Positions 45,051 through 49,032 of a DNA stretch of 64,000 nucleotides are shown piece by piece. This stretch comes from Spirochaetota bacterium (lineage in GTDB: Bacteria; Spirochaetota; Spirochaetia; Treponematales; UBA12059), in NCBI GenBank assembly GCA_026398615.1, contig JAPLSN010000042.1:124001-188000 (forward strand), read 5' to 3'. The position numbers and the translations under genes were made by a program. The notes below the pieces were generated by a model, which ran no database searches, was not told the DNA's origin, and worked only from the letters and a program-made list of their open reading frames with translations. Position 1 is the first letter of the stretch. Each line of letters starts with the position of its first letter.

Positions 45051-45080
45051 GTGACACCGGCCGGCCAATTCGGTTATACT
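45051..45080 (+). promoter_or_regulatory. Promoter of the mcsA-mcsB-clpC cluster, near-leaderless
   Basis: GTGACA (45051-45056), 18-nt spacer, TATACT (45075-45080). The mcsA ATG (45087) begins 6 nt after the -10 box. No CtsR-type heptad repeats were seen. Confidence 0.6.
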
Positions 45081-45086
45081 CGGATC

Positions 45087-45242
45087 ATGGTGTGTGAACG
45101 ATGCGGCAGCGCCGAAGCCGTCATTTACATCCGGAACGGCACGACGGGCGATCCGGGCGGGCAGAGGCTGTGCTCGTCCTGCGCCTCCCTTCGGGGAATA
45201 CGCGCGACATCCGGCGGGACGGTTTCGCTCGATCTCGATTAG
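45087..45242 (+). CDS. mcsA: McsA-like N-terminal zinc-finger peptide, ended by an amber codon
   Basis: 51 codons to a TAG. MVCERCGSAEAVIYIRN and RLCSSCASLRG make the first CxxC-CxxC zinc finger of McsA, the activator of the arginine kinase McsB. Family McsA proteins are ~170-185 residues. After the TAG the same frame continues as LLAGSGRDPADRAVCPACAL then GCAVCAATFPGLVARR, which is McsA's second zinc finger (45285-45350), and then runs into the McsB homologue. So the peptide is either a truncated McsA or the first part of a product made by readthrough. There is no Shine-Dalgarno sequence; the start is next to a -10 box. Confidence 0.7.
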   Translation: MVCERCGSAEAVIYIRNGTTGDPGGQRLCSSCASLRGIRATSGGTVSLDLD

Positions 45243-45332
45243 CTTCTGGCGGGATCCGGCCGGGATCCCGCCGACCGTGCTGTCTGTCCTGCCTGCGCAT
45301 TGGGGGCTTCCGATTTCGAAAACGGGGGAAGG

Positions 45333-46532
45333 ATGGGATGCGCCGTCTGTGCAGCCACATTCCCCGGCCTGGTCGCGCGGAGGATGGAACGATCGGGAAA
45401 CTCCAGGCGAAGTCCGAACGCCCTTTCGCCTGCATCCGGAGGCGCCGAACGGCAAGAAAGTCGGACGCGGACAGACGAACGGCCGCAACCATCGATACTC
45501 CGCCGCTTTTCCCATGCCGGCGTTCGCGATGCCTGCGACTACGATATCGTCGTGAGGACGAGGGTGGTCGTCGGAAGGAATCTCGAGCGCTTTCCCTTTC
45601 CCTGGCGCCAGGATTCGCGGACGGCCGAAGCTTCTTTACTCGCAGTGGCCGCCACGCTCGGGACCTTGCCGGGCTTTGGTCGTTTCGACCTTGCGCTGGC
45701 GAGCACCACGGAACGGAGGGCGTTCGTGGAGCGCGGGCTCCTGCGGGAATCCTATGCGTTTTCCAGCGCCGCTGCCTTGTACCAGTCCGGCGATGAACCC
45801 CTTTTCTGCGTCGTCAACGATGACGATCATGTAGACATACTGGCCGAACTGCCCGGGGCCCGCATTGACGAGACTTCGACCTTGGCGCTTTCGGTCGCTG
45901 ACGCGTTCGAGGCGCGGGAGCGAGTGGCATTTACCCCGGATTTCGGGTACCTGGCGGCCGAACCGGAACGCTGCGGTGACATGATCCGCGTTTCGGCGCT
46001 GCTTCATCTAGCCGGATTGCATGCCGCAGGTTTGATCGATCGCACCGTCAAGGCAGCGCTGGAATCCGATCTCGAGGTGACGGGACGGTATTCCGGACAT
46101 GAATCATCGATGGCAGACCTGTACGAGTTCGTACCGGCCCGAACCAGGCTGGGCGGCGGGAAGAAGACCATGGAGGGATTCAGCCGGGCGATTTCGGAAA
46201 TAACCAGGGCTGAGCGTGAAGTGCGGAAGCGCCTGTTGTCCAAGAACCGCGATGGCGTGGAAGACATGGTTTTCCGCGCCTACGGAACCCTGCGGTATGC
46301 GCGTACGATGGACTTCGATGAAGCCGTCGACGCGGCGTTCCGGCTCCGCCTGGGGCATTATCTGGGGATCGTGGGCGGACTCCAACCCGGGGATTTCACG
46401 GATTTTCTCTGTTCGCTGCAGCCCGCAGGTTTGCTATATTATCACATGAAAGGCGAAACCGAAGCCGATGGAAAGGCCAGGGCGCGCATCCTGCGCGATG
46501 CGGCGTCCCGGATCCGGATCGAAGGAGCTTGA
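45333..46532 (+). CDS. mcsB: McsB-like protein (protein-arginine kinase homologue, active site degenerate)
   Basis: 399 residues from an ATG with GGGGG nearby; the frame is open back to 45243, so the true start is uncertain (TTG at 45300, ATG at 45384). Homology to McsB starts at DYDIVVRTRVVVGRNLERFPFPW and continues through VNDDDHVDIL, GYLAAEPERCGDMIRVSALLHL, MVFRAYGTLRYARTMDFDEA and LGHYLGIVGGL. Several phosphagen-kinase motifs are changed: NEEDHLR reads NDDDHVD, SCPTNxGTGLR reads AEPERCGDMIR, and RGxYGE reads TGRYSGH. It is probably a pseudokinase or has altered activity. clpC follows 4 nt later. Confidence 0.75.
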   Translation: MGCAVCAATFPGLVARRMERSGNSRRSPNALSPASGGAERQESRTRTDERPQPSILRRFSHAGVRDACDYDIVVRTRVVVGRNLERFPFPWRQDSRTAEASLLAVAATLGTLPGFGRFDLALASTTERRAFVERGLLRESYAFSSAAALYQSGDEPLFCVVNDDDHVDILAELPGARIDETSTLALSVADAFEARERVAFTPDFGYLAAEPERCGDMIRVSALLHLAGLHAAGLIDRTVKAALESDLEVTGRYSGHESSMADLYEFVPARTRLGGGKKTMEGFSRAISEITRAEREVRKRLLSKNRDGVEDMVFRAYGTLRYARTMDFDEAVDAAFRLRLGHYLGIVGGLQPGDFTDFLCSLQPAGLLYYHMKGETEADGKARARILRDAASRIRIEGA

Positions 46533-46536
46533 TGCC

Positions 46537-49032
46537 ATGTTCAAGGGTTTGACCCAGCGAGCCCAACGCGTCCTGTCGCAGCTGGCGCAGGAAGAAGCCA
46601 AGCGTTTCAGGGCCGACCAGCTCACTCCGGAGCATGTCCTGCTTGCCCTCATCCGCGAGGGCGACGGGGTGGGCATCCGCGTCCTCCGCAACCTCAAGAT
46701 CGATACCACGGAACTGCGGATAGAGCTCGAGCGGAATTCCTCGTTCAAGCGCGGAAACTTCGTCCTTGGCGACCTGCCCATCTCGAAACGGGTCAAGATG
46801 CTCCTCGAGCTGGCGGCCGAGGAAGCGAGGCTCATCGACAGCGAGTACATCGGCACCGAGCACCTCGTCATCGCGGCGGCGCGGGAGAGCGACAGCGTAT
46901 TCGAAGCCTACCTGGGGAAATACGGCATCTATTTCGAACAGATCAGGGGCGCGGTGAAATTCATCGCTGCCGCGAGGGAAGAAGCCCGTTCCGACCGTGC
47001 CACGGCCAGGGAAACGACGCATGACCTTCCCCAATCCGCCGTCCGGACTCCGCTTCTCGACGAATTCGGCCGCGACCTTACGGCCGTCGCGCGCGACGGT
47101 CGCATCGACCCGGTCATCGGGAGGGAACGCGAGATCCGCAGGATCATACGGATCCTGTCGCGGCGGACAAAGAACAATCCGGTTCTTATCGGGGAGCCCG
47201 GCGTCGGGAAGACCGCCGTCGTCGAAGGACTTGCCATGAGGATCAATGCGTGCCTCGTACCGGAGCGTCTCGCCTCCAAGCGCCTTGTTGCCCTGGATAT
47301 CGCCTCGGTGGTCGCCGGCACCAAGTACCGGGGGGAATTCGAGGAACGGCTCAAGCGCATCATGAAGGAAATCAGCGCGGCCGGCAACGTCATACTGTTC
47401 ATCGACGAGCTCCACACGGTGATCGGGGCTGGTAGCGCCGAAGGAACGATAGACGCTTCGAACATGCTCAAGCCGGCGCTGTCGCGCGGAGAGATCCAGT
47501 GCATCGGCGCCACGACCCTCGACGAATACCGGAAGTACTTCGAAAAGGACGCTGCCCTCGAGCGCCGATTCCAGAGCGTCCTCGTCGAGGAACCATCGCT
47601 GGACGAAACGGTCGCGATCCTCTCCGGCATCAGTTCCCGCTACGAGCAGTATCACGGCGTCGACTACGCGCGGAGCGCCATCGAAGCCGCGGCGGAATTG
47701 TCGAAGCGCTACGTGACCGACCGCTTCCTGCCGGACAAGGCCATCGACCTTCTCGACGAGGCGGGATCCCTGAAAAAGATCGATTCCCTCATCGATCCGC
47801 CCGAATTGCCGTCGATCGAGGAGGAAATCCGGAGGTTGTCCGATGAGAAACTCGTGCTCGTATCGTCGCAGGACTACGAGCGGGCCGCTCAAGTGCGGGA
47901 TCGGGTCAGGGTGCTTCGTGCGAAGCTGGAGGCGCTCAAGTCCGAATGGGGAGGGGCCGCTCCCGGTTCGCGCCCGCTCGTCACCGATGATGACATAAAG
48001 GCAGTCCTTTCGGACATGACCGGAATACCGCTTTCCCGGCTCGAAACGAGCGAGTCGGAACGGCTGCTCTCCCTCGAGGGGCAAATCGCCAGGAGGGTAG
48101 TCGGACAGGAAGAGGCGATCGCCGCCCTCGCGAGGTCAGTGCGCAGGTCCAGGGCGGGCATTTCCGATCCGCGGCGCCCCCTCGGATCCTTCATTTTCCT
48201 GGGCCCCACGGGCGTAGGGAAGACGCTTGTGGCCAAGACCCTTGCGGAGACCCTCTTCGGTTCACCCGACGCGCTGATACGGATCGACATGTCCGATTTC
48301 ATGGAAAAGCATAACGCGTCCCGCCTGGTCGGAGCTCCGCCCGGTTACGTCGGATACGACGAAGGCGGCATGCTCACGGAGAAAGTCAGGAGGCGGCCCT
48401 ACAGCGTCGTCCTGTTCGACGAGATGGAAAAAGCCCATCCTGACGTGCTCAACCTCCTGCTTCAGCTTCTCGAGGAAGGGGAACTCAGGGACAGCCTCGG
48501 CCACGTGGTGTCGTTCAGGAACAGCGTCATCATCATCACGAGCAACGCGGGAGCTCGCGACCTGGCGCGGGGCACCGTCCTCGGTTTTCGTGTGGAAGAT
48601 CCCCGGTTCGACGAAAAGTCCATCAAGGAAGCAGCGATGTCGGCGGTGAAAAGGACTTTCAACCCGGAATTCCTCAACAGGCTCGACGAGATCATCGTGT
48701 TCCATCCGCTCTCGAAATCCCAGGCTCGGAAGGTCCTGGACATCATGATCGACGAGCTGGCTTCGCGGCTCATCTCGAAGGGAGTGGTGTTCGAAGTCAC
48801 CGAGCGAGCGAGGGACATGCTGGTGGAAAAAGGGTACGACATCACATACGGCGCGCGGCCCATGCGCGCTCTCCTTCGCAGGGAGATCGAGGACAGGCTT
48901 GCAGAGGATTTCATCGGAGGCTTGTGCAAGCCGGGATCCACGGTGAAAGCTGAACTGCGGGACGGGACGATACGGGTGACGGTTCACGCCGGGAAAAAAC
49001 CCGATGCTGCCCCGGCACCGGTCGGAGTCTGA
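46537..49032 (+). CDS. clpC: ATP-dependent Clp protease ATP-binding subunit ClpC
   Basis: 831 residues. The N-terminal repeat domain ([20 protein letters not shown]) is the docking site for McsB-type adaptors. AAA1 has Walker A GEPGVGKT and AAA2 has GPTGVGKT. Between them is a UVR-type middle segment ([17 protein letters not shown]) that marks ClpC rather than ClpB. Arginine fingers and the C-terminal D2 region ([19 protein letters not shown]) are intact. ClpC unfolds substrates for ClpP. It directly follows the McsB homologue, as in the Firmicutes ctsR-mcsA-mcsB-clpC operon, but no ctsR gene is present. Confidence 0.96.

What the first reader, a model, noticed from the sequence alone, without database searches (positions are those of the whole stretch)
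45087..46532. McsA zinc fingers and McsB share one reading frame interrupted by an amber codon
Seen: ATG at 45087, TAG at 45240-45242 and the McsB-like frame are all in the same phase, and no other stop occurs up to 46530. The part before the TAG is McsA zinc finger 1. The part after it gives LLAGSGRDP, CPACAL and GCAVCAATFPGLVARR, which match McsA's linker and second zinc finger, and it continues into McsB. Known: McsA and McsB are separate proteins in Firmicutes. Inference: either a McsA-McsB fusion hit by a nonsense mutation, or programmed readthrough of the amber codon. McsA's UVR part is missing. Other genes here end in TAG (rplU, skp, ispE), so TAG is not a sense codon.
Basis: partly seen in the sequence, partly recalled or inferred. 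Interest (0 to 1): 0.75.

Follow-up and report, generated by a model that had tools for sequence, protein, structure and literature searches.

The report
McsA–McsB fusion cut by stop codon
In this spirochaete genome two stress-protein genes that are usually separate are joined into one, as in at least eight related genomes, but here a single TAG stop codon cuts the joined gene near its start; it is most likely a recent knock-out mutation or a sequence error, and deliberate read-through of the stop is possible but unsupported.

Summary
ATG 45087, TAG 45240-45242 and TGA 46530 share one frame with no other stop. McsA zinc finger 1 lies before the TAG; zinc finger 2 and an McsB domain lie after it. 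Eight uninterrupted McsA-McsB fusions occur in a sister family of the same order, at least three of them also without the UVR segment. At the amber column none of 37 relatives has a stop (34 sense codons, 3 gaps). Sequence after the TAG is about as conserved, relative to zinc finger 1, as in relatives. The genome uses TAG as an ordinary stop (58 of 320 genes sampled), has an intact RF1 gene, and shows no PylS and no tRNA with anticodon CUA. No ATG, GTG or TTG precedes the first cysteine pair of finger 2. Best reading: a fusion gene hit recently by a nonsense mutation, or a consensus error; these cannot be told apart here. A strong hairpin 5 nt after the TAG (-23.5 kcal/mol) is the one feature that keeps read-through open. 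By-product: McsB in this order has almost universally lost the catalytic cysteine and other active-site residues, so it is probably a pseudokinase.

The parts
45051..45080 (+). promoter-like GTGACA-18 nt-TATACT ending 6 nt before the ATG (leaderless start)
   Evidence: sequence; a TATAGT-like box sits 6-9 nt before the mcsA start in most relatives
45087..45239 (+). first open stretch, 51 codons: McsA zinc finger 1 (C3, C6, C29, C32)
45240..45242 (+). in-frame amber codon TAG, inside the McsA linker
   Evidence: no relative has a stop at this column
45248..45272 (+). perfect 10-bp hairpin GGCGGGATCC-GGCCG-GGATCCCGCC, 5 nt after the TAG
   Evidence: only perfect copy in the genome
45285..45350 (+). 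McsA zinc finger 2 (C67, C70, C85, C88)
   Evidence: pLDDT 82-97 in the model of the read-through frame
45381..45530 (+). linker; UVR segment missing, largely predicted disordered
45534..46529 (+). McsB domain (phosphagen-kinase fold), active-site residues largely replaced
46530..46532 (+). TGA stop of the fusion frame
46537..49032 (+). clpC, next gene, same strand, 4 nt after the TGA
   Evidence: Clp_N, AAA, AAA_2, UVR, ClpB_D2-small matches; sequence

Best explanation
The locus is an mcsA-mcsB fusion gene at the head of a clpC operon in a spirochaete. Intact, it would make one protein: McsA zinc fingers 1 and 2 tethered to a catalytically degenerate McsB, probably a non-kinase partner or adaptor of ClpC. 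One codon in the linker between the fingers has become TAG, either as a recent real nonsense mutation or as a consensus error of the assembly. If real, RF1 terminates there, leaving a 51-residue zinc-finger peptide and little or no McsB. Shown: the frame, the fusion in relatives, TAG used as a stop, loss of active-site residues. Inferred: recency, loss of function, adaptor role.
For: Uninterrupted homologous fusions in eight genomes of sister family f4. At the amber column 34 of 37 relatives have a sense codon and 3 a gap; conservation after versus before the amber is 0.88 for the window, 0.78-1.13 for relatives, so finger 2 was under constraint until recently. All eight zinc cysteines kept. 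TAG ends 58 of 320 genes in 464 kb, and coding-like continuation after TAG (8/58) is not clearly more frequent than after TGA (21/220) or TAA (8/42). RF1 with PAT and GGQ motifs; no PylS; 42 tRNAs found, none with anticodon CUA. The gene is dispensable in the order: 190 of 394 genomes match, 138 of 198 good ones.
Against: The strong hairpin 5 nt after the TAG is an unlikely coincidence: 0 of 320 stops and 6 of 12,200 coding windows in this genome fold as well. No second inactivating change has accumulated in the following 429 codons.
Confidence: 0.8

Rival explanations
1. Programmed or tolerated read-through: some ribosomes insert an amino acid at UAG, helped by the hairpin 5 nt downstream, giving a short zinc-finger peptide plus a small amount of full fusion protein.
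For: Perfect 10-bp hairpin right after the TAG, z -3.56, rarer than 1 in 1000 coding windows in this genome; downstream frame and zinc cysteines intact; finger 2 has no start codon of its own before its first cysteine pair; the read-through product gives a confident model.
Against: No suppressor tRNA, no PylS, intact RF1; no other sign of TAG read-through; neither the TAG nor a hairpin at that place occurs in relatives, though several have other hairpins of -22 to -25 kcal/mol in the same linker. The five bases after the TAG are CTTCT; in E. coli reporters high G and low T after the stop favour read-through, and TAG reads through less than TGA (PMC11126739).
Confidence: 0.1
2. Gene fission: a 51-residue finger-1 peptide and a separately started McsB are both made, the latter by re-initiation or internal initiation at TTG 45300, ATG 45333 or ATG 45384.
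For: In-frame starts exist after the TAG; codon use is typical again only in the McsB domain.
Against: All three starts cut or lose finger 2, whose four cysteines are nevertheless conserved. ATG 45384 has its GGAGG directly abutting and ATG 45333 has only a G-rich stretch close by; the nearest starts are 57 and 90 nt after the stop. Low codon scores in the finger-2 region are not diagnostic, since low GC3 there also occurs in intact fusions.
Confidence: 0.07
3. TAG is a sense codon in this organism.
For: None beyond this locus.
Against: TAG terminates 58 of 320 genes; RF1 intact; no CUA tRNA.
Confidence: 0.01

Closest known systems
McsA (protein-arginine kinase activator, B. subtilis / S. aureus)
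   Same: two four-cysteine zinc fingers in order; located before mcsB and clpC
   Different: interrupted by TAG between the fingers, no UVR segment, continues in frame into McsB; scores far below the NCBIfam cut-off
McsB (protein-arginine kinase; PDB 6FH1, 6TV6, 8GQD, 8WTC)
   Same: same fold over the whole domain (TM-score 0.81-0.86 by target length for full-length McsB chains); followed by clpC
   Different: of six active-site residues of G. stearothermophilus McsB only R29 is kept; C168 is Glu, R126 Asp, E122 Asp, R31 Val, and the loop position of E213 is Gly
Uninterrupted McsA-McsB fusions of sister family f4 (G028, G041, G059, G065, G068, G071, G101, G107)
   Same: same domain order, same kind of start signal, some without UVR
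   Different: no stop codon; about 25-31% identity over the fusion
Viral-type stop-codon read-through with a 3' RNA structure
   Same: UAG followed within a few nt by a stable hairpin
   Different: no evidence of read-through, not conserved, bacterial gene without a known suppressor

Membership tests
McsA | two CxxC...CxxC zinc fingers | tested here: met
   all eight cysteines present across the TAG
McsA | C-terminal UVR segment | tested here: not met
   profile match ends at position 110 of 182; absent in the alignment
McsA | score above NCBIfam NF053706 cut-off (210 bits) | tested here: not met
   30.6 bits for the joined frame
McsB | phosphagen-kinase fold of McsB | tested here: met
   PF00217 2.8e-14, PDB McsB 1e-29 by sequence, structure match 7.9e-24
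McsB | active-site residues R29, R31, E122, R126, C168, E213 (listed in PMC12387690) | tested here: not met
   only R29 kept; the E213 column lies in a loop and is less sure
McsB | score above NCBIfam NF053707 cut-off (500 bits) | tested here: not met
   124 bits; no genome of the phylum sample passes it either
McsB | arginine phosphorylation of proteins | not testable with these tools
   needs biochemistry
programmed stop-codon read-through | purifying selection on the downstream frame while the stop is conserved | tested here: inconclusive
   downstream frame conserved, but no relative shares the stop; no other genome of the same genus turned up
programmed stop-codon read-through | decoding tRNA or recoding machinery | tested here: not met
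   no CUA tRNA among 42, no PylS; the tRNA set is not complete (no Ile tRNA seen)
programmed stop-codon read-through | 3' RNA structure close behind the stop | tested here: met
   hairpin 5 nt after TAG; function untested

The most novel reading that the evidence does not exclude
A chromosomal bacterial gene that uses regulated UAG read-through, promoted by a hairpin 5 nt downstream and without a dedicated suppressor tRNA, to set the ratio of a free McsA zinc-finger peptide to a full McsA-McsB pseudokinase adaptor of ClpC.
Probability: 0.08. Interest if true: 0.75.

Novelty: new variant of a known kind. Interest (0 to 1): 0.33.

Why it matters
The stop codon itself is probably an ordinary inactivating change. 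What lasts is the context: an McsA-McsB fusion architecture for which the paper searches found no description, in an order whose McsB appears to have lost its kinase chemistry while staying next to clpC. That would make McsAB here a natural test of what McsB does for ClpC without arginine phosphorylation. If read-through were shown, it would be a rare recoded bacterial gene that uses neither pyrrolysine nor selenocysteine.

Tried and rejected
Sense TAG, Pyl or suppressor decoding: rejected. UVR segment hidden in another frame by a frameshift: reading the other frames between 45380 and 45540 showed no UVR-like sequence (by eye). Hairpin as a repeat element: no other close copy in the genome. 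Hairpin conserved at the same place in relatives: not seen. Origin of the fusion: grouping the window McsB with the f4 fusions is not rejected (p-AU 0.37), nor is grouping it with f1 (0.18), so one or two fusion events cannot be decided. Decay after the TAG judged from codon use: low scores in finger 2 and linker, but some intact fusions show low GC3 there too. CtsR search negative, but its control missed B. subtilis, so it was not used. A scan of genome contigs with the window's McsB found no relative; with a relative's McsB it found only RA.bin110 and Treponema sp. AS27yjCOA_177. The fusion alignment was too diverse for that scan.

Full report
Observation. The frame from ATG 45087 holds 51 codons, TAG at 45240-45242, 429 further open codons and TGA at 46530. 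The first part is McsA zinc finger 1; the second carries zinc finger 2 and then an McsB domain. Read as one frame, the McsA profile match covers positions 1-110 at E 2.6e-7. clpC follows at 46537. This is the only McsB and the only convincing McsA in the genome.

Relatives. A search of 99 related genomes found McsB in 56; 394 genomes of the order gave 190 with a match. In family f1, to which the window's genome belongs, mcsA and mcsB are separate, overlapping genes in different frames wherever both could be read. In sister family f4, eight genomes have one uninterrupted McsA-McsB frame: G028, G041, G059, G065, G068, G071, G101, G107. G065, G028 and G059 lack a recognisable UVR segment, as the window does. 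At the amber column the 37 relatives have Asp, Glu, Ser, Ala and other residues (34) or a gap (3), never a stop, and some of their codons are one substitution away from TAG. Two of the relatives are named Treponema sp. AS27yjCOA_177 and Spirochaetes bacterium RA.bin110, so this is a spirochaete.

Is the downstream part decayed? All eight zinc cysteines are intact. The ratio of conservation after and before the amber is 0.88 for the window and 0.78-1.13 for relatives. So the frame after the TAG was translated together with finger 1 until recently, or still is (inference). No ATG, GTG or TTG lies in frame between the TAG and the first cysteine pair of finger 2, so an intact finger 2 needs passage through the TAG.

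Can the cell read TAG? RF1 is present with PAT and GGQ motifs; PylS is absent. Of 42 tRNA genes none has anticodon CUA; the set is not quite complete, since no isoleucine tRNA was seen. In 464 kb, TAG ends 58 of 320 genes. Coding-like continuation in frame follows 8 of 58 TAG, 21 of 220 TGA and 8 of 42 TAA stops, so TAG does not stand out.

The hairpin. A perfect 10-bp stem, GGCGGGATCC-GGCCG-GGATCCCGCC, starts 5 nt after the TAG (-23.5 kcal/mol, z -3.56). None of 320 stops and 6 of 12,200 coding windows in this genome fold as well. However, linkers of several relatives contain hairpins of -22 to -25 kcal/mol at other places, and the hairpin was looked for after the TAG was known. It is suggestive, not evidence of function.

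McsB as a pseudokinase. Using the active-site list for G. stearothermophilus McsB in PMC12387690, the window keeps R29 only. C168 is missing in all 38 McsB sequences of the order tabulated and in nine of ten more. Among 30 high-scoring McsBs from the wider phylum, 27 keep C168, all keep R29, R31 and R126, and 28 keep E122; that set is biased toward the best-scoring members. The fold is nevertheless kept: the read-through frame models at mean pLDDT 82.5 and matches solved McsB structures. No paper in the library was found on an McsB pseudokinase or an McsA-McsB fusion; subscription journals are mostly not held.

Promoter. A -10-like TATACT ends 6 nt before ATG 45087, with GTGACA 18 nt further up. 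Most relatives have TATAGT 6-9 nt before the mcsA start. Such boxes close to the start indicate leaderless genes (PMC3160421). The start signal of the interrupted gene is thus intact, which fits a recent stop or a sequence error better than an old pseudogene.

Verdict. Fusion gene: well supported. Interruption: most likely a recent nonsense substitution or a consensus error; which of the two needs the reads. Read-through is possible, at about one in ten.

Noticed in passing
window 45534-46529; L002-L030, L076-L083, L092, L093: McsB of the whole order lacks the catalytic Cys168 equivalent (all 38, 9 of 10 more) and mostly other active-site residues, while 27 of 30 high-scoring McsBs elsewhere in the phylum keep it: probably an order-wide pseudokinase beside clpC.
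   Followed up: partly
window 45075-45080 and mcsA upstream regions in L002-L028, L092, L093: A TATAGT/TATACT box lies 6-9 nt before the mcsA start in most relatives, so the mcsA-mcsB-clpC transcript is probably leaderless across two families.
   Followed up: partly
L009, L011, L013, L021, L076, L078, L092, L093: Eight uninterrupted McsA-McsB fusion proteins, all in one family of the order; in four (G068, G071, G041, G107) a UVR-like segment is still visible between finger 2 and McsB.
   Followed up: yes
order-wide: No mcsAB match in 60 of 198 good genomes of the order, so the system seems to have been lost repeatedly.
   Followed up: no
L035 2504-2593 (G000 contig C1): ARAGORN calls an odd tRNA with four-base anticodon cgag near the Pro and Arg tRNAs; probably a false positive.
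   Followed up: no
The built-in control genome of B. subtilis did not ring for McsB (NF053707) or CtsR, although B. subtilis is known to have both; absence results for these families in that tool should be treated with care.
   Followed up: no
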